This document shows positions 4,918-29,724 of a stretch of DNA of 64,000 nt, in pieces; the stretch's first letter is position 1, and every line of letters begins with the position of its first letter. A program made the translations under genes and the position numbers. A model generated the notes under the pieces. It searched no databases, was not told the DNA's origin, and worked only from the letters and a program-made list of their open reading frames with translations. This stretch comes from Thermoflavifilum aggregans (lineage in GTDB: Bacteria; Bacteroidota; Bacteroidia; Chitinophagales; Chitinophagaceae): positions 62,001 to 126,000 of the forward strand of contig NZ_PGFG01000001.1 in the NCBI RefSeq assembly GCF_002797735.1, read 5' to 3'.

Positions 4918-5043
4918 TTACATTTTGCTTGCTTCAAAGCATCTACAAAAAATTTTATCCAGATTCATCAAAGAATTCTTTTGCCAGCTATGCACAATCA
5001 CATCATGCTTATCAACGTATGCACCTGATACATCATAACACAT
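4918..5043 (-). CDS. Possible 41-residue Cys/His micropeptide
   Basis: The 225-base gap between the lipoprotein gene and the small Cys protein contains an ATG-started frame of 41 codons plus stop. It encodes Cys at positions 2, 33 and 35 (CRC near the end) and two His residues. The same frame stays open further upstream, with two more Cys, into the 3' end of the preceding gene. A metal-binding micropeptide in a copper cluster would be plausible. It could equally be a chance frame or the remnant of a longer C-terminus lost by frameshift. No ribosome binding site is evident. Confidence 0.2.
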   Translation of the reverse strand: MCYDVSGAYVDKHDVIVHSWQKNSLMNLDKIFCRCFEASKM

Positions 5044-5093
5044 GATGAATGATGGCTGGCAGTAGTAATTGCACAATGGAACCGGATTTTCAC

Positions 5094-5456: not shown

Positions 5457-5467
5457 GTGATTTGTTG

Positions 5468-5475
5468 CAAAATTA
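5468..5475 (-). promoter_or_regulatory. Bacteroidota -7 element upstream of the copper cluster
   Basis: Read on the minus strand this is TAATTTTG, a full match to TAnnTTTG, 12 bases before the ATG of the small Cys protein. No TTG -33 box was found at the usual 17-23 base distance, so the call rests on one element and position. Confidence 0.4.
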
Positions 5476-5560
5476 TTTGATTTAAAGATTTGAAATGTAT
5501 TTTGTATAGCAGAGATAAATTTTTCTTTTTATGCTGCACTTGCTGTAAAAGCCTGTTTAA

Positions 5561-5594
5561 TTTGGTGAATGCTTATCTTCACGAATTAAATTTG
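5561..5594 (+). promoter_or_regulatory. Bacteroidota-type promoter for nadC
   Basis: TTTG (5561-5564) and TAAATTTG (5587-5594) are separated by 22 bases and match the -33/-7 pair of Bacteroidota promoters. The element lies 42 bases before the nadC start codon and points to it. Confidence 0.55.
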
Positions 5595-5636
5595 CAGCAT
5601 ATCTAGCCTATTCAATCAAACGGATAATTTGCATAC

Positions 5637-6506: not shown

Positions 6507-6522
6507 TGTGTATTTTGCCTAT

Positions 6523-7473
6523 ATGATGATGCAAGACCCCAAAGCTGTTTCCCGCATCCGGCTCATTATCAATCCTCGCGCCGGCCATCGGAAGCGCAGT
6601 TCTCTTCTCCGTGTATTGGAAACGACGCTGCAGAAACTACATATAGACTATGAAATCTGCTGGACGTCCTATGCGGGTCATGGCCGGGAGCTGGCTGCTG
6701 AAGCCATTGCCCGGGGATTTGCATTTGTTGGAGTGGTGGGTGGCGATGGTTCGGTCAACGAAGTTGCAACAGCCTTTGCAGAAGCCTCATCGGAAGATGT
6801 ACGCACGCGGCTGGTGATCATTCCTGCTGGCAGCGGCAACGGGCTCGCCCGCGCGCTGAATATCCCGCTTTCGCCCCGGAAAGCCATCGAACTGATCCAC
6901 AGCGGCCGGATCCGATGGATTGACGCCGGTATCGCAAATGGCAGATACTTTTTCAGCAACGCCGGCGTAGGTTTTGACGCTCTCATTGCCCGCCGGTTTG
7001 CTGGTCATACCCTCCGCGGTATCCTTACCTATACCTGGCTGACCCTTGCCTCCTTTCAAAAATACCGGGCTAAGAAATATACGCTCAGCCTTGACGGTGA
7101 GATCCTTCAGGAAAGGGCTTTTCTCATCGCTGTGGCCAATGGCAACCAGTTTGGCTATGCCTTTAAAATTGCCCCTCACGCCAGCCCCGACGATGGCTGG
7201 CTGGAAGTGTGCATCATCCGCCCTCTGAACTGGACATCCCTGGCTAAACTGGCTGTACAGGCCCTGCGGGGAAAACTCAATGATTCAGAAAAACAAGTCC
7301 GTTTTTTCCGTGCCAAACAGCTCACCATCCAGCGCAAAAAAACCATCAAATGGATGCAGGTGGATGGTGAGCCTGTGGATATCCGCTGCCAGGGGCAGGT
7401 GGAAATCGGGCTGCTACCCCGGGTTTTGCCGGTTGTAGTGCCTGGGGCTGAACAGCATGGCCTGCACCCATGA
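6523..7473 (+). CDS. Diacylglycerol/sphingosine kinase-family lipid kinase
   Basis: About 316 residues of the DagK/LCB5 (YegS-like) family. The N-terminal nucleotide-binding part shows LIINPRAGHRKR and the GGDGSVNEV signature, then PAGSGNGLARALNIP. The C-terminal half has NAGVGFDALIARRF and the closing WMQVDGEPVD seen in these kinases. It probably phosphorylates a lipid hydroxyl group, such as diacylglycerol or a sphingoid base; the substrate cannot be told apart from sequence. The frame is open from a GTG at 6508, but ATG at 6523 puts the Rossmann-like strand at the usual distance. It follows nadC by 16 bases and is likely co-transcribed. Confidence 0.88.
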   Translation: MMMQDPKAVSRIRLIINPRAGHRKRSSLLRVLETTLQKLHIDYEICWTSYAGHGRELAAEAIARGFAFVGVVGGDGSVNEVATAFAEASSEDVRTRLVIIPAGSGNGLARALNIPLSPRKAIELIHSGRIRWIDAGIANGRYFFSNAGVGFDALIARRFAGHTLRGILTYTWLTLASFQKYRAKKYTLSLDGEILQERAFLIAVANGNQFGYAFKIAPHASPDDGWLEVCIIRPLNWTSLAKLAVQALRGKLNDSEKQVRFFRAKQLTIQRKKTIKWMQVDGEPVDIRCQGQVEIGLLPRVLPVVVPGAEQHGLHP

Positions 7474-7564
7474 TAGGACCAGTTTTGTGTAATCTGAATT
7501 TTCTAATTTTAGGTTGTTATAGAAAAACTCTCGATCCCAGGTTTTGCCCAAACCCAAACGACTT

Positions 7565-7900
7565 ATGAAAAAACAGTCTTCCCGATCCGGAATTGTGTAT
7601 TCCACCGATCCCGATTTCTTCAGCAAAAATGAGGATACAGATGCTCCGCAATATCCTGCACGGGCATCCCAAATCCTGCATATCACACTGGATAACCATC
7701 ACCGGAAAGGAAAAACGGTGACCCTGATCACGGGATTTGAGGTTCCGGAACATGAACTCCGGGAAATTGCCCATGGATTGAAAACCAGCTGCGGCACGGG
7801 CGGCACCCACGAAAATAACAGGGTACTGCTGCAGGGTGATTGCCGGGAAAAAGCCCGGCAGTGGCTGTTGAAAAACGGATTTGCTAAGGTAAAGGTGTAG
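7565..7900 (+). CDS. SUI1/eIF1-family translation factor (YciH-like)
   Basis: A 111-residue protein with a basic, low-complexity N-terminus and a C-terminal SUI1 domain (residues ~45-111). Typical segments are RKGKTVTLITGF, LREIAHGLKTSCGTGG and GDCREKARQWLLKNGF. Bacterial members bind the small ribosomal subunit like eIF1 and are thought to influence start-codon fidelity. The frame is open from an earlier ATG at 7544, but 7565 (starting Met-Lys-Lys) looks more natural. The last 17 bases overlap the 3' end of convergent birA, so both genes are read through the same DNA at their ends. Confidence 0.9.
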   Translation: MKKQSSRSGIVYSTDPDFFSKNEDTDAPQYPARASQILHITLDNHHRKGKTVTLITGFEVPEHELREIAHGLKTSCGTGGTHENNRVLLQGDCREKARQWLLKNGFAKVKV

Positions 7901-8642
7901 CGGGCTGATCAAGCACAAATTCCAGCTGCCCGAAAGCCCAGCTTTTTCGCCCCTCTGCCGTATCCATGATGAGATGCCCATCGGGCTGCACTTCCCGGAT
8001 AATGCCCCGGAAACGTCGCCCATCGCTTTCATACCAGGCTTCCTGATCCTTGCGATATAACCACTGATGATACTCCTGGATCAGCTCCCGGGTTTTCCCT
8101 CCCTGCAGATCCCGATAGCGCTTCATGATCTGATCATACACCTCCTGCAAAACATCTTGCAGCTCGTATTCCTTACCTGTGATCTGACTCAGGGAAACAG
8201 GGTTGGGCAATTCAGGCGGGAACTGTTTCTGGTTTACGTTTAACCCGATTCCCACGACAGCATATTGCCAATATTGCCCCTTCCAGGTGTTTTCAATTAG
8301 GATACCGCCTGCCTTTCTGTCATTCCAGTATAAATCATTTGTCCATTTGATGTAAAAATCCTGCTGGCAAACACGGGCCGCCGCTTCCCTGAGGCCTGCG
8401 GCAACGGCCATACTCAGCAGAAATGGCGGCTGATGGCTGATGACTGCCGGCTTCAGAATTATGCTTACTAGCAGATTGGCGCGGGGCTCACTGATCCAGC
8501 CCTTATTACGCTGGCCCCTGCCAGCATGCTGCTGCAGGGCCTGAATGACAGTACCTTCCGGCAGACCACCATGCTGAATCCGGGCCATGGCATAATTGTT
8601 GGTGCTGTCAACTTCATCCAATCGAATCAGGACAAAATCCAT
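7884..8642 (-). CDS. birA: Biotin--[acetyl-CoA-carboxylase] ligase
   Basis: A 252-residue biotin protein ligase that activates biotin to biotinyl-AMP and attaches it to the carrier domain of biotin-dependent carboxylases. Catalytic signatures are DEVDSTNNYA, the biotin-binding HAGRGQRNKGW (GRGQR in the lid), IKWTNDLYWNDRKAGGILIE and VVGIGLNVNQ. There is no N-terminal helix-turn-helix, so this is a monofunctional class I ligase that does not act as a repressor. The small C-terminal SH3-like part (residues ~205-252) is present. It is convergent with the SUI1 gene. Confidence 0.95.
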   Translation of the reverse strand: MDFVLIRLDEVDSTNNYAMARIQHGGLPEGTVIQALQQHAGRGQRNKGWISEPRANLLVSIILKPAVISHQPPFLLSMAVAAGLREAAARVCQQDFYIKWTNDLYWNDRKAGGILIENTWKGQYWQYAVVGIGLNVNQKQFPPELPNPVSLSQITGKEYELQDVLQEVYDQIMKRYRDLQGGKTRELIQEYHQWLYRKDQEAWYESDGRRFRGIIREVQPDGHLIMDTAEGRKSWAFGQLEFVLDQPATPLP

Positions 8643-8742
8643 AGCTAAAAACGATTGGGGTTAATCACTAAATTTATGTAAAAATAGAGAGTGCAAACAA
8701 ACGAAGAAACATAAGACATCCTAATTTCGTATAGAAATTTGT

Positions 8743-8750
8743 TAACTTTG
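8743..8750 (+). promoter_or_regulatory. Bacteroidota -7 element upstream of rsfS
   Basis: TAACTTTG matches TAnnTTTG and lies 64 bases before the rsfS start, in the AT-rich gap between divergent birA and rsfS. A convincing TTG -33 box is not seen. Confidence 0.4.
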
Positions 8751-8813
8751 TTTAGAACCGTTTTTTGCCAATTTTGTTATTCATTTTGCTAAAAAACTAA
8801 AAATCAGGAAAGC

Positions 8814-9224
8814 TTGTTGGAATCCATATCTGCAACAACCCGACAGAGACAACACAAGTCCACGCGGCTTCACAAAAACAGCAAAATCATTACATCCATT
8901 ATCCGGGCTATTCAGGAAAAAAAAGGACAGCGCATTGTTTCGCTTGATCTCAGAAAAATTCCTGAAGCTATAGCCGACTTTTTTATCATTTGTGAAGCCG
9001 ACAATTCCATCCAGATCAAAGCCATTGCCGAGCATGTGGAGGAATATGTAAAACAACAGGTAGGTGAATCTCCTTATCGGCAGGAAGGCTACACGGCCCT
9101 GAAATGGGTATTGCTCGATTATGTAAATGTGGTAGTACACATTTTTTATCCGGAAACACGCCAGTTCTACAAGCTGGAAGAAATGTGGAGTGATGCGGAA
9201 CAAACCGAATTTCCGGATGCTTGA
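8814..9224 (+). CDS. rsfS: Ribosomal silencing factor RsfS
   Basis: A 136-residue RsfS/Iojap protein. It binds L14 of the large ribosomal subunit and blocks subunit joining when nutrients are scarce. The family core is clear: IVSLDLRKIPEAIADFFIIC, IKAIAEHVEEYVKQQ and GYTALKWVLLDYVNVVVHIF. The frame has a stop at 8790 and no ATG before the core, so initiation must be at TTG 8814 (or the adjacent TTG 8817). An AGGAAAG stretch just upstream can serve as ribosome binding site. ftsH follows 40 bases later on the same strand. Confidence 0.94.
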   Translation: MLESISATTRQRQHKSTRLHKNSKIITSIIRAIQEKKGQRIVSLDLRKIPEAIADFFIICEADNSIQIKAIAEHVEEYVKQQVGESPYRQEGYTALKWVLLDYVNVVVHIFYPETRQFYKLEEMWSDAEQTEFPDA

Positions 9225-9264
9225 TATTAAATTTTTTTATGGTTTGACACGAATGTATTGACAT

Positions 9265-11292
9265 ATGGAAACAGGAAACGGGCTGCAGGGAAAGGGATCG
9301 CCTAAAAATCCCCGGAGAGGTCCAAAATTCAATTTTTACTGGATTTACGTGCTGATAGCCGTGCTACTGCTGGCTATGAATTTTTTTGATTTCCGCTCCA
9401 AACCCCAGGAAATCAGTTTTCAGGATTTTGCCAAAAATTATCTGGCCGACCATGACGTGGCCCGGCTGGATGTGATCAACGGCCGGCAGGTAGAAGTGTA
9501 TATCAAACAAGACCGGCTGACACAGCCCAAATTCAAGGACGTAGCCCGCAACAACCTGGGCAACCTGAATCCGGGACCCCACTATGTGTTTACCATCGGC
9601 AATATTGAAACCTTCAACCAGGAACTGGCTGCTGCCGAGAAACAGTACAATATTGCTCCTGAAGAAATTGATGTTACCTACCATGACCGGGGCGACTGGT
9701 TCACCCCGTTTGTGAACATTGCCATTCCGCTACTGATTTTCGTAGCCTTGTGGATCTTCTTGATGCGCAAGATGGGTGGCAGTTCCAGCGGAGGGGGGCC
9801 GGGAGGCATCTTCAACATCGGCAAATCGCGGGCTCAGCTGTTTGAAAAAGGTACCCGTGTCAACGTTACCTTCAACGATGTGGCTGGCCTGGATGAAGCC
9901 AAACAGGAAGTCATGGAAGTGGTTGACTTTCTCAGGAACCCGAAAAAATACACGGCGCTGGGCGGTAAAATTCCCAAGGGCGCTTTGCTCGTGGGCCCTC
10001 CCGGCACCGGTAAAACACTGCTGGCTAAGGCCATGGCCGGCGAAGCACAGGTACCCTTCTTCTCCATGTCGGGATCCGATTTTGTGGAGCTGTTCGTGGG
10101 TGTGGGTGCCAGCCGGGTGCGCGATCTGTTCCGCCAAGCCCGGGAAAAAGCCCCCTGCATCATCTTCATCGATGAAATTGATGCCATTGGCAGGGCACGC
10201 GGTAAAAATGTGATGATGAGCAACGACGAAAGGGAAAATACCCTGAACCAGCTGCTGGTGGAAATGGATGGCTTCAGCTCCGACAGCGGCATCATCATCC
10301 TCGCAGCCACCAACCGACCCGATGTGCTCGACAGCGCCTTGCTCCGTCCCGGACGTTTCGATCGCCAGATTACCATCGATAAGCCTGACCTCATCGGCCG
10401 AGAAAAGATTTTTGAGGTGCACCTGAAACCCATCAAAAAATCACCAGATCTGGATGTTAAAAAACTGGCCGCCCAGACACCCGGTTTTGTGGGTGCTGAT
10501 ATTGCCAATGTATGCAATGAGGCTGCCCTTATTGCTGCCCGTAAAGGAAAGGTTTGTGTGGAAATGGAAGATTTTAACGACGCTATCGACCGGGTCATCG
10601 GTGGACTGGAAAAGAAAAACAAAATCATTTCACCCGAAGAAAAAGAGGTCATCGCCTTCCACGAAGCCGGTCACGCCATCTGCGGCTGGTTCCTGGAGCA
10701 TGCCAATCCCCTGGTGAAAGTTACCATTGTGCCCCGTGGCGTGGCGGCCCTGGGCTACGCACAATATCTGCCCAAGGAACAATACCTCTACAATACAGAC
10801 CAACTCATGGATGATATCTGCATGACCCTGGGCGGCCGGGCTGCAGAGGATATCATCTTTGGCAAAATTTCCACCGGCGCTCAAAACGACCTGCAGGTGA
10901 TTACCAAGATGGCCTATGCAATGGTAACGGTTTACGGGATGAATGAAAAAATAGGCAACGTTTCATTCTACGACCCGCAGAATGATTACACCTTCAGCAA
11001 ACCTTACTCCGAAGAAACAGCCCGGATGATTGATCAGGAAGTGCGCAACCTGATTGATAAGGCTTACCAACGAACCAAGGAGCTGCTGCAAAGCCGGCGC
11101 AATGAGCTTACCATCGTGGCCAGAGAACTGCTGAAGAAAGAAGTGTTGTATCAGGCCGATCTGGAACGGCTCATTGGCAAACGGCCGTTTGAAGAGAAAA
11201 AATCCCACGAGCCGGAGGTGATTGTAGCCCCTCCGGACAATGTGGAGCCCGCAGATTTGATTAAACCTTCACCTTCAGCGTCGGTGTCATGA
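9265..11292 (+). CDS. ftsH: ATP-dependent zinc metalloprotease FtsH
   Basis: A 675-residue membrane AAA+ protease. Two membrane spans (residues ~27-45 and ~150-170) flank a periplasmic domain. The AAA module follows with Walker A GPPGTGKT (~245), Walker [12 protein letters not shown] and the SRH arginines ([19 protein letters not shown]). The peptidase domain has the zinc motif HEAGH (~466) and the later glutamate/aspartate region [11 protein letters not shown]. It degrades unassembled or damaged membrane proteins and short-lived cytosolic regulators. The C-terminal tail is Pro/Glu-rich. Its TGA overlaps the ATG of the LUD gene (ATGA), so the two are translationally coupled. Confidence 0.98.
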
Positions 11293-11960
11293 AAGTTTCG
11301 CCCGCAAAAGAAAACATCCTGAAACGGATCCGCAATGCGCTGAGCCAGCCGGTGCCTCTGCCCTTTCCCCAATCGGAGGGCAACAGCCCGGTATTTGCAA
11401 CTCCGCCGGAAAACCTGGATGTACATTTTGCCGAAACTTTTGTGAAACTGAACGGAAAGTTCATTTTTTGCGAAGATGTGCAGGTGTTTGGCAAGCAGTT
11501 TTTTGCCCTTTGCCACCAGCAGGATTGGAAACAGGTGTTGTGCAGGGAAAAGCATGTGCGCGAATGGCTTGCTGCGGATGCGCATTCTCATGCAGGTCCT
11601 GCCATCTCCTTGCTTCCTTCCGTTCCACCCGAACAGATGGATGTAGCCCTCACCGGCTGTGAATGCCTGATTGCCCGTACAGGCTCTGTTGTACTCAGTG
11701 CAGGACAAGCCGCCGGCCGTATGCCCTCTGTTTTTGCTCCCGTGCATGTGGTAGCCGCTTTTAGCGATCAGCTGGTATGGGATATCCGCGATGCCCTGCA
11801 GCTGATCAAAGAAAAATACGGCGACTCCTGGCCTTCGATGTGCAGCCTCCATACCGGCCCCAGCCGCACTTCCGATATCGAAAAAACACTGGTCATGGGT
11901 GCCCATGGCCCCAAGGAAATGTACGTGTTTCTCATCGATCAGCCTCTTTCCCGCCAATAG
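11289..11960 (+). CDS. LUD-domain protein (LutC/YkgG family)
   Basis: A 223-residue protein of the lactate-utilisation LUD family. Visible features are the leading KENILKRIRNAL helix, VALTGCECLIARTGSVVLSAG in the middle, and the conserved C-terminal HTGPSRTSDIEKTLVMGAHGP, which is the family hallmark. LutC-type proteins belong to an iron-sulfur L-lactate oxidation complex, but lutA and lutB are absent here, so the role is unclear. It is coupled to ftsH by a 4-base overlap and followed on the same strand by an LpxH-like gene. Confidence 0.85.
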   Translation: MKVSPAKENILKRIRNALSQPVPLPFPQSEGNSPVFATPPENLDVHFAETFVKLNGKFIFCEDVQVFGKQFFALCHQQDWKQVLCREKHVREWLAADAHSHAGPAISLLPSVPPEQMDVALTGCECLIARTGSVVLSAGQAAGRMPSVFAPVHVVAAFSDQLVWDIRDALQLIKEKYGDSWPSMCSLHTGPSRTSDIEKTLVMGAHGPKEMYVFLIDQPLSRQ

Positions 11961-12024
11961 CTTTGTCAGCTCTGGATTCTTGACTATCTTGCCAGCCCAA
12001 GCCCTTCATACCGTGGAGCTCTCA

Positions 12025-12807
12025 ATGGCATTGCCCGAAAATCAAAAAATTTACTTCGCTTCGGATTTTCACCTGGGAGCAGGAGGAAAACAACCCAGCC
12101 TGCAAAGGGAAAAACTGATCGTGCAATGGCTGGAAGAAATATCGGCCGACGCTGCCCATATTTTCCTGCTGGGCGACCTGTTTGATTTCTGGTTTGAATA
12201 CAAATCGGTTATCCCCAAAGGCTATACCCGCTTGCTAGGAAAACTGGCAGAACTCTCAGACCGGGGCATCCCCATATCCGTTTTTATTGGCAATCACGAT
12301 ATGTGGATGGATGGTTATTTTGAAGAAGAATTTCATATTCCGGTGTATGATAGCCCGGTTATTTTACACTGCGAAGGGAAAAGTTTTTATCTCGGACATG
12401 GCGATGGATTGGGCCCGGGCGACAGAGGATATAAGATGCTGAAAAAAATCTTCCGCAATCCCCTCTGCAGAAAACTCTTTGCCATGCTGCATCCTTCCTG
12501 GGGAATAGCTATTGCCGATTTTTTCAGCCGCCAAAGCCGGGCTGCCACATCTACCGAAACCTACCTGGGAGAAGAGCGGGAATGGCTGGTGCAATATTGC
12601 AAGCAAGTGCTTGCGGAGAGGCATATCGACTATTTCATTTTTGGCCATCGCCATCTTGCCTTGGACATCACCCTGCCGGGAGGCAGCCGTTATATCAACC
12701 TGGGCGACTGGCTCAGGTTTTATTCCTTTGCTGTATTTGATGCCCGACAAGGGCTGCAGCTGTGCTATTATCCCGCCACGGTAAAAACTTTTTCTGCCGG
12801 TAACTAA
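12025..12807 (+). CDS. UDP-2,3-diacylglucosamine pyrophosphatase-like metallophosphatase (LpxH family)
   Basis: A 260-residue calcineurin-like phosphoesterase. The five metal-binding motifs are in order: SDFHLG, LGDLFDFWFEY, IGNHDMWMDGY, YLGHGDGLGPGD and FGHRHLALD. The LGDLFDFW stretch and GDxxxK-type insert (GDRGYKMLKKIFRNP) fit the LpxH group, which hydrolyses UDP-2,3-diacylglucosamine to lipid X in lipid A synthesis. The frame is open further upstream into the LUD gene. ATG at 12025, with GGAG ten bases before, gives the normal family length and is preferred. A general phosphatase role cannot be excluded. Confidence 0.87.
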   Translation: MALPENQKIYFASDFHLGAGGKQPSLQREKLIVQWLEEISADAAHIFLLGDLFDFWFEYKSVIPKGYTRLLGKLAELSDRGIPISVFIGNHDMWMDGYFEEEFHIPVYDSPVILHCEGKSFYLGHGDGLGPGDRGYKMLKKIFRNPLCRKLFAMLHPSWGIAIADFFSRQSRAATSTETYLGEEREWLVQYCKQVLAERHIDYFIFGHRHLALDITLPGGSRYINLGDWLRFYSFAVFDARQGLQLCYYPATVKTFSAGN

Positions 12808-12817
12808 TGTCATTGCC

Positions 12818-13654
12818 ATGAAAACGTTATACTCCGGCATTCTTTGTATTGGCTGGTCGTGCTACGCCTTTTCTGCCACCGCACAGGCGCCGCAGCTTTC
12901 CTTCCGGATCACCGACAGCTCCGCATTAAAGGCCTGCCAGGTGTACACAGACCCTTCCGGCAATTTGTATTGGATCAATCTGCAGGGTGTTTTCTTCAAA
13001 AAAGATTTGCATGCTGACAGCCTGTATCAATATACCAACTGGAGTGCCGGCATTCCCGACCAAGCCGACGCAAGCAATCCGTTGCGCATTTTGCTTTTTT
13101 ATGCTAATACCGGGCGCATTCAATTTCTCTCCAGATGGCTGACTTCCCAGTATGTACTCGACCTGAAAGCCCAAGGCATCCTGCAACCTGCTGCCATGGC
13201 TCTTTCCTACGACAACCAGATCTGGGTATTTGATGCACGGAACGGAACCTTGAAAAAAATAAGTCCTGACGGTAATCTGCTCCTGCAAAGTGCTCCCTTT
13301 AACCAGCTTATGCCCGGACTGCTGCAACCCACACGGATCATTGACCGACATCAACAGGTATATCTGTACGATCCGCTACGGGGTATCGCTGTGTACGATG
13401 AGCTGGCCAATTTCAAAACATGGATGCCGGTTGAAAATTCCCAATCGTTTGCAGTGACAGATGAATTTCTGTTTGTACTCAAAGCTGATAGTCTGTATGT
13501 ATTTCAGCCTCCTTTCGGACAATGGCCCGGCATGCCTTTACCTGCTTATATCAAGCCTCGGGACATAGCCGCCTCACCCGATAACCACCACCTGTGGCTG
13601 CTTGGCGCCCATGCCTTGTATACCCTTCAGCTATCCGTTGTGTCGAACAACTGA
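12818..13654 (+). CDS. Exported protein of unknown function, beta-propeller-like
   Basis: A 278-residue protein with a signal peptide (cleavage after residues ~22-24, FSATAQAP) and no named domain that I recognise. The body alternates short strands with segments like DPSGNLYWINLQGVFFKKD, YDNQIWVFDARNGTLKKISPDG and QVYLYDPLRGIAVYDE. These look like blades of a WD40/NHL-type propeller. It starts 10 bases after the LpxH-like gene and overlaps the 3' end of convergent recO by 28 bases. A periplasmic or surface location is inferred; function is unknown. Confidence 0.75.
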   Translation: MKTLYSGILCIGWSCYAFSATAQAPQLSFRITDSSALKACQVYTDPSGNLYWINLQGVFFKKDLHADSLYQYTNWSAGIPDQADASNPLRILLFYANTGRIQFLSRWLTSQYVLDLKAQGILQPAAMALSYDNQIWVFDARNGTLKKISPDGNLLLQSAPFNQLMPGLLQPTRIIDRHQQVYLYDPLRGIAVYDELANFKTWMPVENSQSFAVTDEFLFVLKADSLYVFQPPFGQWPGMPLPAYIKPRDIAASPDNHHLWLLGAHALYTLQLSVVSNN

Positions 13655-19920: not shown

Positions 19921-22900
19921 TCAGCGGAAAGGTGCCTTCAGCGTACGTTTTTGCCCCCTGATATTGAAAATATCAATCCGGCTTACCATGCTATCCACCA
20001 GCAAGGCATGCGGAGAAGCCGAAAGAAAAGCTCCCTGCCAGCCCACCTCAGCCCGGCGCGACCGGCCATTTTTCAGATATTCTACCGCCGCATATTCATC
20101 TGGCTTGAGGGGAACCAGCTGCAACGGCAGGCGAGGTTTAAACAACAGCAGCTGTCCATTGTGCTGGGTAACTGCCAGGCCTGCATGCCCCTGCCCCAGG
20201 TCAATCCACGCCATAGCTTTGGCATCGCCAGGCACATAAAATCCACCCTGCAGGATACTCTGCGGCCGGAAATGCCCCTGGCCATCGCCCAGCAATACCA
20301 GTCCGTTCAGGGCATCATAGCGGCCAGTATTGGGATCAGGACCATAATCATTGCCACACAAGGCAATGTCCAGGTTGCCATCCCCGTTGAAATCGCCGGT
20401 CACCATGCCATACACCGGAGCCACCTGTGCTTCCACCGGCAGCGGGTGCATTTCAAAACGCCCATGGCCTTTGTTTTCCAGATACACCGAATGAAATTGA
20501 TTGGCTTCCAGGATAAGGGCATTTTTCAGCTGTTCCGGACTGAGGATGTCGCGAATAGTAGCCAACCCAAAGCCCCGGTAGGAAGGAAATTTACGTTTCA
20601 ACCCAGGTATCTGCCTGATCAGATCATCCCTTCCTTCCGTAGGATATTCTTTCCTGTTACCAGCCGAATCAGGTAAAAACATAGTGGGAATAGCATCGTA
20701 GGTGCCATTGCCATCAAAATCTCCGGCATACACATGCATAGGATAGGTATGGGAAGCCCGGTAATAACTGTTCATGCCTAGATTGCCCACGATATAATCC
20801 ATCAGGCCGTCGTTGTTGAAATCTCCGGCCACAATGCTGTTCCACCAGCCCAGCTCGTGCTGCAATCCTGTTTGGGCGGTAACATCGCGGAAATGGCCGT
20901 GATCGTTTTCCAGAAAGGTTACAGGCATCCACTCGCCCACCAGAATCAGGTCGGGCCAGCCATCGTTGTTGAAATCAGTCCAGATGGCGGCGCTCACCAT
21001 GCCTATGTTTTTCAGCATGGGGGCAACCTCGCTGGTTACATCCTTGAACAGCGGATGTCCGGGTGTACTTTCATTTTCCAGTATAAAAGAGGAAACGGGT
21101 TTTGGCCATTGCCCGGGTTCCACCCGTCCGCCGACGAACAAGTCCGGCTTGCCGTCGCGGTTGAAATCAGCCGCTATGACACACGATTTGCTGGTGGTAA
21201 TGAAGGGTATGGCGGCCGTATCCAGCACGAACCGGCCGTGACCCTTGTTGTGATAAAACTGATCGGCATAGGCCATCGAGCCTGCTGGTTGCTCCACGCT
21301 GCCGGAAGCCAGGTACAAATCGGGCAGGCCATCTCCGTCGGCATCAAAAATCAATACACCCCGGTTCTCTCGTTTTCGGTCAAACCGGTCAGCAAAGGCA
21401 AGAAAGTCTTTTTGTACGAAATGCCCCGGCCGGTCCTGCAGCAGCCAGGTAGGCGTGTAGCCCGTAGAGGCGCCCAACAGCATATCCTCCAGTCCGTTGC
21501 CATCCACATCGCCGATGGCTATTCCCGGACCATCCTGCGACAGTTTATGTGGCAACAATTTCTGTACAAAAAAGTCATTGTAATCGGGATCCTGGTTTAC
21601 ATAGTGGATACCTGCTTGGGATGTGATCTGGGTAAACAGGGCTGTAGCATCAACCGCCGGCCGGTCGTACCAGTAATGGAGCGCCTGGGTATCTTTGGCC
21701 AGGGTATGATCCGGAAGGGATGCCCACCGGGGGTCTAGCGGTGGATAGCGGGCATCCCGGATGCGCAAGGTCAGCAACTGATTGGCCGGAATCCTGGTCA
21801 GCTTCTGATACTCTCCATTGGGCCATAATACAATCAGGGAATCGGCTTCAGGCGCTTTGCCCAACCCGAAATGTTCAATCGGGTCCACGCTCGAGAGATA
21901 GCCCCTCACCGGCTGATGATACCGCATCTGCAGCTGCCCATGCACATACAGCAGCAGGGTAGTGCCTATCGCATCGCGGTTCAGGGAATCACCCACCAGC
22001 TGCACGCGTAAAAAATTGGCCCGGATATGTTTTCGGTCATTCAGGGTGTTTTCAAACACAAATGCTGGCTGGTTGATATTGTTCACCACATAATCCAGGT
22101 CGCCGTCGTTATCCAGATCCACATACACGCCTCCGTTGGAAAACGAAGGAATATCCATGCCCCAGGCCCGCGTAACATCGCGGAAATGCAGGTTGCCCAT
22201 GTTCTCAAAAGCATAATTGGGTACCTGGATGCTGGGGATATGATTCAGAATATCCTGTTTGGGCATCAGGTTGGTAGCCATTTGCTTGTAGGTGATGAAA
22301 TCATGATCCGTTACGTCTTTTGGATAGCCGTTGGTAATGATGAGGTCCAGCCGGCCGTCGTTGTTGAAATCGGCCAGGCTGGGTGTCCAGCTCCAGTCCG
22401 TTTCAGCAACCCCTGCCAGATAAGCCACATCGCTGAATACCGGATGCTGCACACTGTCGCCTTCCCCCACGGATGGTCCCTGGTTGATCTGCAACACATT
22501 TCGCCCAAACTGAATCACATACCCATAGGCAATCATATTCAAGAAGTTGAAGTAATTCTCTGCCGGCATGTTTTTCTTTTTCCGCAGGTTGTCTGCTGCA
22601 GCCATGTCCACACTCACCAGGTCGGGCAGGCCATCGTTGTTGATATCGCCCACATCGCTTCCCATAGCCGATTGGGCGGTATGGCGGAAATAGGATTTGA
22701 TGGCATTGGTGAAAGTACCGTTGTGGTTGTTGATATACAGCAGGTCATTGGTCATGAAATCATTGTCCACATAAATATCGGGCCATCCATCGCCGTTGAA
22801 ATCGGCAATATCTACCGAAAGCCCGTAGCCATCGTCGTGAATACCCGCCTGTGCCGACACATCCGTGAATACCGGATGATGCAGGGAGTCATTCCAGTCG

Positions 22901-23574
22901 TTGCGAAACAACTTATCGGAATTGGTATTCCTGAACTGCTCCAAAGGACCATAAAAGCTGCTGCTACCCCGGCCAGCCGGCGTGGTTTCCACGAGATACA
23001 TATCCAGATCGCCATCATGGTCATAGTCAAAAAAGGCGGCCATTACGGAATGCCCGGTATCGTCAAGCCCATATGCATGCGCCTCTTCCTTAAACACAGG
23101 CACACCGTTTTTATCCAGCCCCTGATTGATAAACAGCATATTGCGGCGCTTTTCCGGGTCTTTGCTGATCGTGGCACATACGTAAATATCGGGCCACCCG
23201 TCGTTGTTGATATCCACCACGGTAGCCCCGTTGCACCAGCGCCCCATGCCTCGCACACCTGCCTCATCGGTTACATCCTCAAAATGCAGGTTCCCCCGGT
23301 TCAGGTAAAGCCGGTTGCCTGTGAGGCTGCCGGTGAAATACAGATCAGGCAGGCCGTCCCGGTTGAAATCACCCACAGCCACTCCGCCTCCGTTGTAGAG
23401 AAATTCCAGGTCAATGGGATTGATGGAATCGTTTTCCTGCACTTTGTTATTGAAATCTATACCCGTTCTGGATGGAGGCAATAAACGGAAAAGCGTGTGG
23501 GGCGAGCGCCGGCAGCCTATTCCCATTGCCAGCCCTGCAAGCAGGCAGGCAATCACCAGGAGGCGATGGTTCAT
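19921..23574 (-). CDS. Large FG-GAP/VCBS repeat lipoprotein with ASPIC/UnbV domain
   Basis: A 1217-residue exported protein with lipobox GIGC near residue 21. I count about 14 calcium-binding-like repeats of the form GDFNxDGxPDL, spread over two blocks (residues ~65-500 and ~680-1150). They would fold as two integrin-alpha-like propellers. Between them (about 525-610) is an ASPIC/UnbV domain with HFGLGKAPEADSLIVLWPNG. In Bacteroidota such proteins often accompany SusC/SusD glycan loci, but none is nearby. Surface display as a calcium-dependent binding protein is inferred. The regularly spaced repeats also create long antisense frames that are not genes. Confidence 0.88.
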   Translation of the reverse strand: MNHRLLVIACLLAGLAMGIGCRRSPHTLFRLLPPSRTGIDFNNKVQENDSINPIDLEFLYNGGGVAVGDFNRDGLPDLYFTGSLTGNRLYLNRGNLHFEDVTDEAGVRGMGRWCNGATVVDINNDGWPDIYVCATISKDPEKRRNMLFINQGLDKNGVPVFKEEAHAYGLDDTGHSVMAAFFDYDHDGDLDMYLVETTPAGRGSSSFYGPLEQFRNTNSDKLFRNDWNDSLHHPVFTDVSAQAGIHDDGYGLSVDIADFNGDGWPDIYVDNDFMTNDLLYINNHNGTFTNAIKSYFRHTAQSAMGSDVGDINNDGLPDLVSVDMAAADNLRKKKNMPAENYFNFLNMIAYGYVIQFGRNVLQINQGPSVGEGDSVQHPVFSDVAYLAGVAETDWSWTPSLADFNNDGRLDLIITNGYPKDVTDHDFITYKQMATNLMPKQDILNHIPSIQVPNYAFENMGNLHFRDVTRAWGMDIPSFSNGGVYVDLDNDGDLDYVVNNINQPAFVFENTLNDRKHIRANFLRVQLVGDSLNRDAIGTTLLLYVHGQLQMRYHQPVRGYLSSVDPIEHFGLGKAPEADSLIVLWPNGEYQKLTRIPANQLLTLRIRDARYPPLDPRWASLPDHTLAKDTQALHYWYDRPAVDATALFTQITSQAGIHYVNQDPDYNDFFVQKLLPHKLSQDGPGIAIGDVDGNGLEDMLLGASTGYTPTWLLQDRPGHFVQKDFLAFADRFDRKRENRGVLIFDADGDGLPDLYLASGSVEQPAGSMAYADQFYHNKGHGRFVLDTAAIPFITTSKSCVIAADFNRDGKPDLFVGGRVEPGQWPKPVSSFILENESTPGHPLFKDVTSEVAPMLKNIGMVSAAIWTDFNNDGWPDLILVGEWMPVTFLENDHGHFRDVTAQTGLQHELGWWNSIVAGDFNNDGLMDYIVGNLGMNSYYRASHTYPMHVYAGDFDGNGTYDAIPTMFLPDSAGNRKEYPTEGRDDLIRQIPGLKRKFPSYRGFGLATIRDILSPEQLKNALILEANQFHSVYLENKGHGRFEMHPLPVEAQVAPVYGMVTGDFNGDGNLDIALCGNDYGPDPNTGRYDALNGLVLLGDGQGHFRPQSILQGGFYVPGDAKAMAWIDLGQGHAGLAVTQHNGQLLLFKPRLPLQLVPLKPDEYAAVEYLKNGRSRRAEVGWQGAFLSASPHALLVDSMVSRIDIFNIRGQKRTLKAPFR

Positions 23575-23985: not shown

Positions 23986-25731
23986 ATGAAACTGTTCACC
24001 AACCACCGGGTGGCGGCTTATGCTGTCTTGGCCACCCTTTTATTGCTCACCACGCGCGGTTTTGCGCAGCTGAAAATCGGAAGCAATCCCACCAACATCC
24101 AGAAATCGGCTATCCTGGAGCTGGAAAGTGATCGCCAGGGTTTGTTGCTCACCCGCCTGACCGACACGCTCCAGATCAATTCCTATACACCGCCGGATGG
24201 GATGATTATTTACCTGAACAAGGCTCCCAATCCCGGGTTGTATGTGCGCCGCAACGGCTACTGGGCACAGCTTTCCGTGGCTGCTGATGATAGCACGGCT
24301 TTCTGGCGCCGGGGCGGCAACTGGGGAACCGATTCAGCCGGTAATTTCCTGGGTACCCGCGATGCCAAGCCAGTGGCCATAGGTGCCAATGGTACGGAAG
24401 CCATTCATATCACCCAAAATGGCAACCTGGAATTGCCGAATCTGCAACAAACGACCGACAGCCTGCAGGTGCTGGTCATCGACCCCAGCAACGGCAATAT
24501 CATCAAGCGCAGAAACCTGTCGAATGCAGCCTTCCGCGACGCCATCCAGATACTGAACGGCCTGCGCAATGAAGGCATCACCCTGAAAGCCGACAGTTCA
24601 ACCACCAATCCTGCGCTGGGCTTCACCGCCAGCTCTGCTGATAGCTCCATCACCCTGAATATTCCTGTGGTAAACAATACTACCCAAACTGCCGGTTTGC
24701 TCACCTACGCAGATTACCTGAAGCTGCAATACGCCGCTTCCAACTGGTCTACAGCTTTTGATCCCATTAATCCCGACAATAACGGACTAACCGTAGATAA
24801 TACCGCCAAAGTCATTACCCTGCACGCCGCCGATGCTTCCCACCCCGGCGCAGTTACCGCCGCTGCTCAGACCTTCGGAGGGGACAAAACCTTCAACAAC
24901 AATGTAAATATCATTCAGAACCTGGGCGTAACTGGTAACAGCACCATAGGTGGTACGCTTTCTGTAACTGGCACTACCACGCTGAGCAGCAACGCCACAG
25001 TGGGGGGCACCCTGGGCGTAACCGGCAATGCTACCTTTAACAACAATGCTACCATCCAGGGTAATGCTACCGTCAACGGCAATACTGTGCTGAATGGCAA
25101 CCCTGGCAGCACCCTTACTTTAACCAACATCGGTAATGCTGCTCCTACCGATAACAATGTGCTCATCCGCAATTCTTCCGGCGTGGTGTTGCAAAAAACC
25201 CTGAACCAGGCGGCCTTCAAACAACTGCAGGTAGGCAAAGACGCTTCTCAGCACGATATCTACATCGACAGCAGTGCAGCCAATAAAACCATCATCAACA
25301 TCCCTACCGCTGCTTACAATGTACGCGGCGTAATGGATACCACAGCACAGACCTTTGCCGGCAGCAAGAGCTTCCGCGATTCGCTGGCTATCGGCAGCAC
25401 CGCTACCCCCAATTCCACCCTGCAGGTGCAGGGATCCTTTGCCCTGGCCATCAAAACGGTAACGAGCACCTATACCGCCACTGCCAATGACCATACCATC
25501 CTGGCCGATTGCTCGAGCGGACCAATTACTATTACCCTGCCCAATCCCTCAGGCATGGCAGGACGGATTTATACCATCAAAAAAGTCGGCAATGGTGGCA
25601 TTGATAATACCTTGACCATCCAGCCTACCGGCGGACAGATTGAGGGTGGCACCAGCTACACCATTTACAACGACTGGACTTTTGTGACGCTGCAAACCGA
25701 TGGCACCAACTGGTATATCATCCAGAAATAA
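23986..25731 (+). CDS. Fibre-like exported protein with shared N-terminal module
   Basis: A 581-residue protein with a signal peptide (ending ...TRGFAQ). Immediately after it comes a module (~residues 28-105, LKIGSNPTNIQKSAILELES...GLLLTRLTDT) that recurs in the next gene. The centre (~310-390) is a run of Asn/Thr/Gly-rich pseudo-repeats such as GTLSVTGTTTLSSNAT and GNATFNNNATIQGNAT, expected to form a beta-helix or trimeric fibre. The C-terminal ~95 residues (TATANDHTILADCSSGPIT ... WYIIQK) resemble a domain found at the ends of phage tail and bacterial surface fibres. No S74 or T9SS sorting domain is present. The frame extends upstream to 23917, but ATG 23986 starts the signal peptide. Surface adhesion is inferred. 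Confidence 0.72.
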   Translation: MKLFTNHRVAAYAVLATLLLLTTRGFAQLKIGSNPTNIQKSAILELESDRQGLLLTRLTDTLQINSYTPPDGMIIYLNKAPNPGLYVRRNGYWAQLSVAADDSTAFWRRGGNWGTDSAGNFLGTRDAKPVAIGANGTEAIHITQNGNLELPNLQQTTDSLQVLVIDPSNGNIIKRRNLSNAAFRDAIQILNGLRNEGITLKADSSTTNPALGFTASSADSSITLNIPVVNNTTQTAGLLTYADYLKLQYAASNWSTAFDPINPDNNGLTVDNTAKVITLHAADASHPGAVTAAAQTFGGDKTFNNNVNIIQNLGVTGNSTIGGTLSVTGTTTLSSNATVGGTLGVTGNATFNNNATIQGNATVNGNTVLNGNPGSTLTLTNIGNAAPTDNNVLIRNSSGVVLQKTLNQAAFKQLQVGKDASQHDIYIDSSAANKTIINIPTAAYNVRGVMDTTAQTFAGSKSFRDSLAIGSTATPNSTLQVQGSFALAIKTVTSTYTATANDHTILADCSSGPITITLPNPSGMAGRIYTIKKVGNGGIDNTLTIQPTGGQIEGGTSYTIYNDWTFVTLQTDGTNWYIIQK

Positions 25732-26009
25732 ACACAAGCTCTTGTTTATCAACCGGCCCAACCGGAAATGACCCTATTGCGGATATTTTGAAACATGACG
25801 GCCATCCCAGACGCGGATCAGGAAACGCTTCATTCCAAGCGCAGGCAGGGATCTGCCCGGCGGTATATCTCCACCAGCAGCAGATCCCTTGGCCAGCGCG
25901 GGAAGCAGACGATTTGGAATGGAATGCATCATCCGGTACAAAGCCATGCATAGTCCCGATCACCAAAGGTCGTCATGAACCGGGCAAAACCTAACACAAA
26001 GCCATATCT
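25732..26009. other. Non-coding spacer in the fibre locus
   Basis: This 278-base spacer separates the two fibre genes. No convincing gene, terminator or TAnnTTTG element was seen. Its base composition is like that of the flanking genes, so it may be a decayed coding remnant. Confidence 0.3.
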
Positions 26010-28112
26010 ATGAAAAAAAATATGTACCGATACCTGCTGATCTTCTCAGGATGCCTGCTGGCCGGATTTTCCCTCCGGGCCCAGCAGCTCAAACTGGGCA
26101 GCAATCCTACGGTGATCGACAAAACGGCTCTGCTGGAACTGGAAAGCAGCAACCAGGGCCTGTTGTTGCCTCGCATCAGCGATACCAATGCCTTTCATCC
26201 CAACCCCATTCCCAACGGCATGCTGATTTACTACGTGGGTGCATCCGATAGCTGCCTGATGATCCGCAAGGATGGCGCCTGGGTGAAAATCGTGGACTTT
26301 GTCAATCTTTCCGCCCACGAAACCGACCCCATCGCCACAGCCAAAACAGTATCGGTAAAAGCCGGTAATCCAGCTATCTCGGTCACTGGTGGCACCCAAG
26401 CCCTGGGCAACAATCCCAGCTTTACCCTATCCGTGCCCAACACCAGCCCCATCTGGAATGCCGATAGCCTGCAGAGTGTAAAAATATCCGCCACCCTTCC
26501 CACTGCCAATCAGTTCCTGAACTTCGATGGCAGCCAGTGGACGCCCGTAAGTTTTGACACCGGTTACGTACCCAACTTCTCCCAGAAAGTCAGAAATCTG
26601 TTCAGCCAAGGTACTGGCATCAGCTATAATGCTACTACTGGACAAATCTCCAACACCGGCGTCACCTCCTTCTCCGGTGGCTCCACTGGACTGACACCTG
26701 CCTCGCCTACTACCGGATCTATCACCCTCGGCGGTGTCTTATCCGTCGCCAACGGCGGTACAGGTAATACTTCCGGTCAGGCTCAGTCCGTTGCCGGTTC
26801 ACACAGCACCGGCTATGGCCTTACTGGCCCTTCCTTCAATGGCTCAGCCAACGTAACCTGGCAAGCCGATACCAGTTCTGCCAACAGCCTGGCTACTAAA
26901 AACTTCGTCCGCAACTATTACTCCAGCGGTACCGGTATATCGGTCAATAATTCTACTGGACAAATCTCCAACACCGGCGTGCTCAGTGTAAATGGCAACA
27001 CCGGGGCTATTACCATCGATACCTCCTATATCACCAACTTCTACCAGAAAGTAAGAAGCGAACTGTCAGCAGGCACCGGCATCAACTATAATGCTACCAC
27101 TGGAGTTATCAGCAGTACAGACTGGCATCTCACCGGCAACAGCGGCACAACCCCGGGCACCAATTTCCTGGGAACAACCGATAATCAGGATCTGGTATTC
27201 AAAACCAACAATACCGAACAAATGCGTATCACCGCAGCCGGAAACGTGGGTATTGGTTTAAATACTCCCCCCGAAACTCGTTTGGTCGTAAAAGATACAT
27301 TGTACATCAGAAATACGAGTGGAGGTGGTACCAGCAAACCTTCCATGTTAATTTTTACCAATACATCTGGTAATAGTGGAAATGGGGTATTCAGAATAGG
27401 CGGCGATGGGGGCGATATTTTCTGGCAGGGGGGGGCAGGACAATGCTTGCAAATGGGTGCTTATTGGCCAATGATTTTTATGGGAAATATCCAGATACCC
27501 AATGGTTATTTCCCAAACTATGTTCCCGGAAACACGACCTGGAATGGATTAAATTTAGCTAGGATTGGTGTAGCAATCATTGCACAGCATAATAACGATG
27601 TACCCTTAGTAATCAGAGGTTTTATTGGAACTTCTCAAACTGCGAACTTAACAGAATGGTATAATAACAACGGGACCAGAGTTGCATATGTAGACAATAG
27701 CGGGAATTTTTATGGGGCATCATTCAATAACACTTCAGATAAAAGATTAAAAACAAATCTTCATCCCCTTACTGAGGTTCTTTCGAAAATAGGAGAGATT
27801 CACAGTTACACTTTTTATTATAAGCAAAATATAGCCGGGAGACAGTTCCCATCCACCAAACAAATTGGGATGATAGCACAGGAAGTAGAAAAATATTTTC
27901 CGGAACTGGTGAGCACAGATGATCAGGGATATAAAGCGTTGAATTATGCCCAATTTACTGCCGTTTTGCTGGAAGCCGTGAAGGAGCAGCAAGCTGAAAT
28001 TGAAAAACTGCAACAAGAAAATCAGCAATTGAAGAATGAGCTCAACATCAGGATTTCATCTTTGGAAAACAAACTGAAGGAGCTTTTGCAATCCGAAGTA
28101 AAAAACAAATGA
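26010..28112 (+). CDS. Fibre protein with C-terminal S74 self-cleaving chaperone domain
   Basis: A 700-residue protein: signal peptide (to ~27), the same N-terminal module as its neighbour (LKLGSNPTVIDKTALLELES...GLLLPRISDT), then repeats of the type GTGISYNATTGQISNTG at about residues 207, 308 and 355. The C-terminal ~130 residues are a Peptidase_S74 intramolecular chaperone domain with the cleavage dyad Ser576-Asp577 in NTSDKRLK, then IGMIAQEVEKYFPELV and a Leu-rich coiled coil. In phage tailspikes this domain assembles the trimer and cuts itself off. From about base 27250 the DNA is clearly AT-richer than upstream, suggesting that this end was acquired separately. A trimeric surface fibre is the most likely product. 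Confidence 0.82.
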   Translation: MKKNMYRYLLIFSGCLLAGFSLRAQQLKLGSNPTVIDKTALLELESSNQGLLLPRISDTNAFHPNPIPNGMLIYYVGASDSCLMIRKDGAWVKIVDFVNLSAHETDPIATAKTVSVKAGNPAISVTGGTQALGNNPSFTLSVPNTSPIWNADSLQSVKISATLPTANQFLNFDGSQWTPVSFDTGYVPNFSQKVRNLFSQGTGISYNATTGQISNTGVTSFSGGSTGLTPASPTTGSITLGGVLSVANGGTGNTSGQAQSVAGSHSTGYGLTGPSFNGSANVTWQADTSSANSLATKNFVRNYYSSGTGISVNNSTGQISNTGVLSVNGNTGAITIDTSYITNFYQKVRSELSAGTGINYNATTGVISSTDWHLTGNSGTTPGTNFLGTTDNQDLVFKTNNTEQMRITAAGNVGIGLNTPPETRLVVKDTLYIRNTSGGGTSKPSMLIFTNTSGNSGNGVFRIGGDGGDIFWQGGAGQCLQMGAYWPMIFMGNIQIPNGYFPNYVPGNTTWNGLNLARIGVAIIAQHNNDVPLVIRGFIGTSQTANLTEWYNNNGTRVAYVDNSGNFYGASFNNTSDKRLKTNLHPLTEVLSKIGEIHSYTFYYKQNIAGRQFPSTKQIGMIAQEVEKYFPELVSTDDQGYKALNYAQFTAVLLEAVKEQQAEIEKLQQENQQLKNELNIRISSLENKLKELLQSEVKNK
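26635..26980 (+). repeat. 28-base direct repeat inside the S74 fibre gene
   Basis: Bases 26635-26662 and 26953-26980 are identical over 28 positions and encode the same STGQISNTG-type turn. They belong to the internal protein repeat and could support expansion or contraction of the fibre by recombination. Confidence 0.75.
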
Positions 28113-28116
28113 TTCG

Positions 28117-29724
28117 TTGAAAACGAAATGGATCATATTGCTTCTTTGTTTGCTCTGCAGTAACCTGCTGCATGCCCAGTCTCTTGCCGTGTATGTGCCG
28201 GACCGGGCGCAGTTGTTTGTTTTCCCCAACGATACGGTGTCCATCTTTTCCTCGATGATCAACCACGGCAGCCTGGGCAGCACGTCCGGCGCCGTGGTTA
28301 ACTTTTTGGGTGCGCAATGGATCAACAGCCAGCAGGCCAGCCTGCCCGACGAGAGTGCCGATGGCCAGAGCGGCCAGGGTGGCCTGTTCCGCTTCCTGGC
28401 CCCGGTGGGCGGTGGCCGGCAAACGATTTACGGCGGCTACTCGCTTACCACCGGCCAGGGCCCTGCCTTTCCCAACCTTAGCATTGCCAACCCGCGGGGC
28501 GTGCAGCTGGGCGACCTGGGCGACCTGCACGTGCGCCACGTGCTGAACTTCGAAACCGGCCGCCTCTACCTGAACGGCTGGAACCTGCTGCTGGGCAATC
28601 ACGACGCCGGCCTCATCACCGGCTTCGACAACCAGCGCTACGTGGTTACCGACACCACCGTATTCGGCGGCCTGCTCTACCGCGACCGCCTCACCCCAGC
28701 CGACAGCTCCGTGGTATTCCCTATCGGTACCGACGACCAAAGCTATTCGCCCGCTGCCCTGATGCTCAGCTCCGGCACCGGCCGCATCGGCATGCGCGTA
28801 TTCAACCATGTCTATGCCCATGCCATCCGCGACTCCATCAACGACCTGGATTATGTGAAAAAAACCTGGTATGTGCAGTCGTCCAACCCTGGCGTGCAAT
28901 ACAACGTGCTGCTGCAGCACCAGGAAGAAGACGAAGGCCCGCGCTTCAGCGCCTGGCGCGACTCCAGCTACGTATCGCTCTACGACCCGGTACAGGGCAA
29001 ATGGGATATAGATCACACCAGTGTGGGCCGGGTGTTCGAAGGACAGATTGACTATGCCAATGTGAGGCTGGCCGGCCATTACATGAACCTGCGCCAGCAC
29101 CTGCAAATGCCCGACTCTGCCGGAAGTGCCCGGTACCTTTCGGTAAGCACCCTTATCTACAGCGGCGATGTGTGCCCCTCCGTGCACTACAACGATCTGC
29201 TGGCGGTGCGCACCAGCCCGGACTACGTGGAGCTGTTCTGGCACAGCTATGGCGAGCGCAACATGGCCTATTATGTGATTCAGCGGCAGATTGACGGACA
29301 ACCCGACTTTGTGGATATCGATACCGTGCAAAGCCAGGCTCCCGGCGGCTTCAGCACCCAAATGCTGTACTACCACCTGAGCGACTACAACCCCACCGAC
29401 CAGTGGAGCTACTATCGGGTGAAAATGGTGGGCCTCACCGGCTGTATCCGTTACACCGATGTGATGCGCGTACCCTGGGCAGCGCAGATCACCATTACAC
29501 CCAATCCGAACAATGGACAGTTTACCGTACGCCTGCGCAACGTGAAACATCCGGTGCGCATGCTGCTGGTAACCGTATGGGGACAAACCCTCCAGCAATG
29601 GACCGTGACGCAAGACCAGGATATTCAGGTACAGCAGCTGAACGATGCTATCTATTTCGTGGAATTCTATGATGCCCGCGACAACCGCTACATGGGCCAG
29701 CAAAAAGTGGTGGTGATTCACTGA
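28117..29724 (+). CDS. T9SS cargo protein with type A-like C-terminal sorting domain
   Basis: A 535-residue exported protein with a clear signal peptide (LLLCLLCSNLLHAQ). The C-terminal ~80 residues match a T9SS type A sorting domain: TPNPNNGQFTVRL, then a VTVWGQTLQQW strand, and the closing IYFVEFYDARDN and QQKVVVIH. It should therefore be exported through the machinery encoded at 50759-55585. The middle is beta-rich, without a recognised enzyme. Translation starts at TTG 28117, four bases after the S74 fibre gene stop, so the two are probably coupled. The gene is GC-rich, in contrast to the AT-rich end of the preceding gene. Surface or secreted partner of the fibres is inferred. Confidence 0.8.
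   Translation: MKTKWIILLLCLLCSNLLHAQSLAVYVPDRAQLFVFPNDTVSIFSSMINHGSLGSTSGAVVNFLGAQWINSQQASLPDESADGQSGQGGLFRFLAPVGGGRQTIYGGYSLTTGQGPAFPNLSIANPRGVQLGDLGDLHVRHVLNFETGRLYLNGWNLLLGNHDAGLITGFDNQRYVVTDTTVFGGLLYRDRLTPADSSVVFPIGTDDQSYSPAALMLSSGTGRIGMRVFNHVYAHAIRDSINDLDYVKKTWYVQSSNPGVQYNVLLQHQEEDEGPRFSAWRDSSYVSLYDPVQGKWDIDHTSVGRVFEGQIDYANVRLAGHYMNLRQHLQMPDSAGSARYLSVSTLIYSGDVCPSVHYNDLLAVRTSPDYVELFWHSYGERNMAYYVIQRQIDGQPDFVDIDTVQSQAPGGFSTQMLYYHLSDYNPTDQWSYYRVKMVGLTGCIRYTDVMRVPWAAQITITPNPNNGQFTVRLRNVKHPVRMLLVTVWGQTLQQWTVTQDQDIQVQQLNDAIYFVEFYDARDNRYMGQQKVVVIH

What the first reader, a model, noticed from the sequence alone, without database searches (positions are those of the whole stretch)
23986..29724. 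Three-gene surface fibre locus joining phage-type S74 chaperone to a T9SS cargo protein
Two exported fibre-like proteins are encoded head to tail. The second ends in an S74 chaperone with an intact Ser576-Asp577 dyad. Four bases after its stop a T9SS cargo with a C-terminal sorting domain begins at TTG. The S74 domain is known to assemble phage tail trimers and cut itself off. Its pairing with a signal peptide and a T9SS partner suggests a displayed, self-processed adhesin or fibre system. Only the domains are seen; the system-level role is inference.
Basis: partly seen in the sequence, partly recalled or inferred. Interest (0 to 1): 0.7.

Follow-up and report, generated by a model that had tools for sequence, protein, structure and literature searches.

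The report
Swappable-tip fibre operon with T9SS partner
A heat-loving bacterium (genus Thermoflavifilum) carries a three-gene unit, kept together across at least 18 genera of its family, that encodes one constant and one tip-swapping phage-like fibre plus a partner protein tagged for the type IX secretion system, so it is probably a variable surface attachment device.

Summary
Gene A (23986-25731) and gene B (26010-28112) are exported fibre-like proteins. B ends in a true S74 chaperone (PF13884, E 1e-14) with the SDxxxK motif, and a T9SS cargo (g3, 28117-29724, TTG start) follows four bases later. The linkage is real and general. Of 52 g3 loci with enough upstream DNA, 46 have a fibre gene directly upstream (median gap 3 bp) and 40 have A-B-g3. 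In 396 Chitinophagaceae genomes, A-type fibre and g3 co-occur 44:1:4:347 over 18 genera; no other neighbouring gene is kept across more than 4. But S74 is not what is paired with T9SS: only the window, of 46 directly upstream fibre genes, has it. Other Thermoflavifilum species examined have different B tips, and the S74 tip lies in a 39% GC stretch (27257-28167) unlike their DNA, which points to a swapped-in cassette. A and B resemble phage fibres and, by sequence, Bdellovibrio "mosaic adhesive trimer" fibres. Best reading: a lineage-specific surface fibre module with constant A, tip-swapping B, and a T9SS-exported partner that probably anchors or delivers the fibres. Anchoring, trimer formation and self-cleavage were not tested.

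The parts
23986..25731 (+). Gene A, the constant fibre: leader (23986-24066), N-module (about 24067-24300), beta-repeat shaft, C-terminal tailspike-type beta domain (residues 488-581, 25447-25728)
   Evidence: C-domain found in 40 of 40 A homologues, pLDDT 85-97, matches phage Solidus tailspike 24qj by sequence E 9.7e-5 and by fold E 4.5e-5
26010..28112 (+). Gene B, the variable-tip fibre: leader (26010-26081), N-module (about 26082-26303), repeats, 'bridge' module (27102-27305), then tip
   Evidence: profile of B homologues matches only Bdellovibrio MAT fibre structures in the PDB at E < 0.01
27735..27911 (+). S74 intramolecular chaperone/protease domain of B; Ser576-Asp577 codons at 27735-27740, motif SDKRLK, followed by a coiled-coil-like tail
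   Evidence: PF13884 54.8 bits; SDxxxK; PDB phage tail fibres 6f45 and 8jov, E about 5e-8
27257..28167 (+). Inferred exchanged cassette: S74 tip, B stop and most of the g3 leader; no DNA match to other Thermoflavifilum loci
   Evidence: DNA matches to three other species stop at 27256 at the latest and resume at 28168 at the earliest; tip GC 39.4% against 52.8% (B body) and 58.8% (g3)
28117..29724 (+). Gene g3, T9SS-cargo partner: leader (28117-28176), family-specific N half (residues 21-345), Fn3-like domain (353-453), T9SS sorting domain (454-535; 29476-29721)
   Evidence: full-length orthologues in Chitinophagaceae; no strong full-length match outside them in 395 phylum genomes

Best explanation
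The locus is a conserved three-gene unit of Chitinophagaceae, here in Thermoflavifilum, that builds a variable surface fibre. A and B are Sec-exported proteins with the same N-terminal module and a phage/MAT-like beta shaft, most likely trimeric. A keeps one tailspike-type C-terminal domain in every species examined and is the constant fibre. B carries the exchangeable tip that would set binding specificity. g3 is exported by the T9SS, and its conserved N half most likely serves as the cell-surface dock (or export partner) of the fibres. In this species B has received an S74 tip by cassette exchange; S74 would fold the trimer and then cut itself off at Ser576. Shown: gene order, linkage, domain content, tip divergence on a conserved base, T9SS sorting domain and SprA. 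Inferred: the exchange event itself, co-transcription, trimer formation, surface display, docking on g3, self-cleavage, adhesive role.
For: Order and tight spacing: 46 of 52 g3 loci have a fibre gene directly upstream, median gap 3 bp, 40 of them with two fibres, A-B-g3. Co-occurrence 44:1:4:347 in 396 genomes, 18 genera, Fisher p 1e-52 without correction for relatedness. The one A-only genome (G236) has its A gene 2.3 kb from the end of a contig. Neighbouring genes are not shared across genera, at most 4. A tip conserved, B tip not: window against G003, g3 84%, A tip 82%, B tip 20% with a shuffled baseline of 15%; G001 against G003, 96%, 86%, 30%; DNA block maps. GC drop over the tip. MAT-type shaft: A and B profiles hit Bd3182, Bd2133, Bd1334 and Bd2439 structures (accession list). 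T9SS domain and SprA. N-module of A and g3 N half give no match in 50,697 phage records. No promoter or terminator pattern above chance within the region.
Against: A and B have no T9SS sorting domain of their own, so how they would cross the outer membrane is open. No contact between g3 and the fibres is shown. The monomer model of A is poor over the N-module and shaft, so trimer formation is not shown. Generic N-module fibres also occur in genomes without g3, so the module does not strictly need g3. The fibres could be periplasmic.
Confidence: 0.6

Rival explanations
1. Co-regulated but separate surface proteins: the fibres and the T9SS cargo act independently (for example two adhesins and a matrix protein) and are linked only because they are needed together.
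For: No contact is shown. g3 has an ordinary T9SS cargo layout with an Fn3-like domain, and related N-half fragments occur weakly in many other large open frames of the family. Generic N-module fibres exist without g3.
Against: The near one-to-one tie between the A-type fibre and g3 in 18 genera, with gaps of a few bases and nothing else conserved nearby, is tighter than ordinary co-regulation needs.
Confidence: 0.25
2. One reading: a dedicated S74/T9SS self-processing adhesin system in which the S74 cut is central.
For: Intact SDxxxK in an exported B protein next to a T9SS cargo. In G019 three S74 fibre genes follow a g3 gene, and in G152 an S74 fibre lies 797 bp upstream of g3.
Against: S74 in only 1 of 46 directly upstream B genes and not in the three other Thermoflavifilum species examined.
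Confidence: 0.07
3. A prophage or tailocin remnant: tail-fibre genes left behind by a phage.
For: S74, baseplate-protein-like and tailspike-like domains.
Against: Sec leaders, no phage structural genes recognised among the flanking open reading frames, N-module and g3 N half without match in 50,697 phage records, conserved as a chromosomal triad over 18 genera.
Confidence: 0.03
4. Periplasmic fibres: A and B stay in the periplasm and only g3 is surface exposed.
For: A and B have a Sec leader but no T9SS sorting domain or other outer-membrane signal recognised in the sequence.
Against: Bdellovibrio MAT fibres of similar shaft sequence are surface displayed (PMC10769870), and tip exchange is typical of exposed binding parts.
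Confidence: 0.05

Closest known systems
Mosaic adhesive trimer (MAT) superfamily of Bdellovibrio bacteriovorus (Caulton et al. 2024, PMC10769870)
   Same: Sec leader, conserved N-terminal part, long beta shaft, exchangeable C-terminal tip that is S74 or not; SDxxxK motif; shaft sequence matches to Bd3182, Bd2133, Bd1334 and Bd2439 structures
   Different: Different phylum; conserved N-module here is about 75-80 aa (MAT about 130 aa, relation untested); fixed A-B pair in one gene cluster; tied to a T9SS cargo gene, for which the paper names no counterpart (the word secretion does not occur in its text)
Phage tail fibres and spikes with S74 chaperone (T5 L-shaped fibre, K1F endosialidase)
   Same: S74 domain with the Ser-Asp dyad near the C-terminus of a beta fibre
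   Different: Sec leader, chromosomal, N-module without match in phage records, no phage genes recognised around it
T9SS type A cargo proteins (TIGR04183), including surface adhesins of gliding Bacteroidota such as SprB
   Same: g3 has a leader, a T9SS sorting domain and a genome with SprA
   Different: g3 is a compact 535-aa partner of phage-type fibres, not a giant filament (SprB size from general knowledge); A and B lack the sorting domain

Membership tests
MAT fibres (Bdellovibrio) | Signal peptide followed by a conserved N-terminal domain | tested here: inconclusive
   Leaders and a shared N-module are present in A, B and homologues, but likeness to the 130-aa MAT N-domain could not be tested (no structure of it in the PDB according to the paper, and no full-length MAT sequence at hand)
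MAT fibres (Bdellovibrio) | Beta shaft with MAT-like sequence | tested here: met
   B profile hits 8ond E 4e-12, 8oml E 4e-8, 8on4, 8ojn, 8ol4 and nothing else at E < 0.01; A profile hits 8ojn E 5e-6; these are MAT entries
MAT fibres (Bdellovibrio) | Mosaic C-terminal tips, S74 or non-S74 | tested here: met
   B tips fall into several classes without detectable similarity, with S74 in the window only among directly upstream B genes
MAT fibres (Bdellovibrio) | Trimer on the cell surface | not testable with these tools
   Needs protein work
S74 peptidase/chaperone (PF13884) | Domain score above curated cut-off | tested here: met
   54.8 bits against 22
S74 peptidase/chaperone (PF13884) | SDxxxK catalytic motif | tested here: met
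   SDKRLK at 576-581
S74 peptidase/chaperone (PF13884) | Self-cleavage | not testable with these tools
   Needs expression and gel or mass spectrometry
T9SS cargo, type A sorting domain | C-terminal sorting domain over cut-off | tested here: met
   TIGR04183 26.1 against 23; PF18962 25.6, slightly under 27; 40 of 46 orthologues match PF18962 at E 0.01; fold matches PorZ C-domain, Z 9.6, 2.4 A over 79 residues
T9SS cargo, type A sorting domain | T9SS present in the genome | tested here: met
   SprA 2688 bits; other components not searched
Prophage tail-fibre cluster | Neighbouring phage structural genes | tested here: not met
   Flanking ORFs look like ordinary chromosomal genes (by inspection); N-module and g3 N half have no match in phage records

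The most novel reading that the evidence does not exclude
The T9SS cargo g3 is the carrier or surface dock for phage-type trimeric fibres that have no T9SS signal of their own, so the triad is a new way to display interchangeable phage-like receptor-binding tips on a bacterial cell, with the tip and the partner's leader exchanged together as one cassette.
Probability: 0.35. Interest if true: 0.8.

Novelty: new variant of a known kind. Interest (0 to 1): 0.58.

Why it matters
MAT fibres are known from Bdellovibrio, where what holds them on the cell is unknown (the authors say its identification awaits further study). Here a MAT-like fibre pair is tied to one specific T9SS cargo gene across 18 genera, which names a concrete candidate for such a dock or export partner in another phylum. 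It also gives a natural series of tip exchanges on a constant base, useful for learning which tip binds what. No paper found in the searches describes the triad; the library lacks most subscription journals.

Tried and rejected
Prophage or tailocin origin: rejected. S74 as the defining link: rejected. Structure of A: only the C-domain is reliable, most of the N-module and shaft are poor. Fold search with g3: hits are dominated by Fn3 domains, so the N half (21-345) was not really tested. Source of the S74 tip: at most 43% identity to viral contigs and phages, no donor found. Operon signals: no promoter or terminator pattern above chance; one TAnnTTTG box upstream of A at 23747, not evaluated.

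Full report
What is there. All three have Sec-type leaders ending A|Q. B ends in S74 (PF13884, 54.8 bits) with SDKRLK, the SDxxxK catalytic motif. g3 ends in a T9SS sorting domain (TIGR04183 over cut-off, PF18962 just under), and the genome has SprA and eight other sorting-domain matches. The TTG start of g3 is plausible: there is no Met inside the leader, and two of three other Thermoflavifilum g3 frames also begin at TTG.

The three genes are a real unit. A profile of the g3 N half (without the sorting domain) found strong matches (200 bits or more) in 48 of 396 Chitinophagaceae genomes and no strong match outside the family in 395 genomes drawn from the phylum. I fetched these loci and annotated them with profiles made from A, B and g3. 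Of 52 g3 loci with at least 1.5 kb upstream, 46 have a fibre gene directly upstream on the same strand. The median gap is 3 bp, 39 of the 46 gaps lie between -28 and +69, and 40 loci show two fibre genes, A-B-g3. The six misses are divergent, fragmentary or outside the family, except G152, where an S74 fibre sits 797 bp upstream. In a reciprocal search, 45 genomes have an A-type fibre and 44 of them have g3; the exception (G236) has its A gene near a contig end. The 2x2 table is 44:1:4:347 over 18 genera; the Fisher p of 1e-52 ignores relatedness. As a control, no other neighbouring gene family is shared by more than four of the genera, so the triad is kept together in unrelated surroundings.

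S74 is a tip, not the theme. Only the window, among the 46 directly upstream B genes, has S74, and 3 of 41 B-type proteins scanned with Pfam have it. By the home-made S74 profile the other two are the G152 gene and the G019 fibre downstream of g3 that was included in that alignment. Within Thermoflavifilum the B tips differ while A and g3 do not: window against G003, g3 N half 84%, A tip 82%, B tip 20%, shuffled baseline 15%; G001 against G003, 96%, 86% and 30%. The same pattern is seen in three other genera (L097/L100, L101/L104, L107/L108). At DNA level, matches between the window's B and the other species end at 27256, in the 'bridge' module, and resume at 28168, close to the end of the g3 leader. 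The stretch between has 39% GC over the tip, against 53% in the B body and 59% in g3, and ranks in the lowest 2.2% of same-size windows of the 64 kb. The simplest reading is cassette exchange of tip plus leader between conserved flanks. That is inferred; no donor was found.

What the proteins look like. In the PDB the B profile hits only Bdellovibrio MAT fibre entries at E < 0.01 (8ond, 8oml, 8on4, 8ojn, 8ol4, identities). The A profile hits MAT entries, phage baseplate receptor-binding proteins and a phage tailspike. The A C-domain is well modelled (pLDDT 85-97) and matches that tailspike (24qj, 2.7 A over 97 columns). Most of the rest of the A model is poor, as expected of a monomer model of a possible trimer. 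g3 is modelled with mean pLDDT 90: an N half rich in short strands, an Fn3-like domain (353-453) and a C-domain like that of PorZ (454-535, Z 9.6, 2.4 A over 79 residues). The N half has no assigned fold because the search was filled by Fn3 matches.

How it most likely works. A and B cross the inner membrane by Sec, form beta fibres (most likely trimers) and are displayed with the N-module towards the cell. A is constant; B offers the changing tip. g3 goes through the T9SS and is the best candidate for the surface dock or carrier of fibres that have no T9SS signal. In this species S74 would assemble the B trimer and cut itself off. Assembly, display, docking and cutting are inferred from the families named. 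In Bdellovibrio, S74 cutting of Bd3182 and surface display of MAT fibres were shown, and the element that holds them to the cell is unknown (PMC10769870).

Known or new. The parts are known kinds: S74 fibres, MAT-like shafts, T9SS cargo. The triad, its near one-to-one tie with g3 and its tip exchange were not described in any paper found, within a library that lacks most subscription journals. I rate it a new variant of a known kind.

Noticed in passing
L052 (G019) 2478-10118: A second g3 locus in G019 is followed downstream by three S74 fibre genes in a row with the N-module, gaps of a few bases; the partner here sits between non-S74 and S74 fibres.
   Followed up: partly
L057 (G031) 8588-12998: Two head-to-tail S74 fibre genes with a bridge-like module but no g3 nearby: S74 fibres also occur without the T9SS partner.
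   Followed up: no
window 19921-23574 (- strand): A 1217-aa gene, by eye of the FG-GAP/UnbV type, divergent from gene A; open frames of 1219-1227 aa sit in the same place in other Thermoflavifilum genomes.
   Followed up: no
L046 16544-19323 and similar loci: In genera coded g3, g8 and g108 in the genome search a TPR-like protein lies a few kb from the triad, and in g3 and g8 a response-regulator-like protein too.
   Followed up: no
window about 4401-5930 and 49551-50980: Other stretches of the window as AT-rich as the S74 tip.
   Followed up: no
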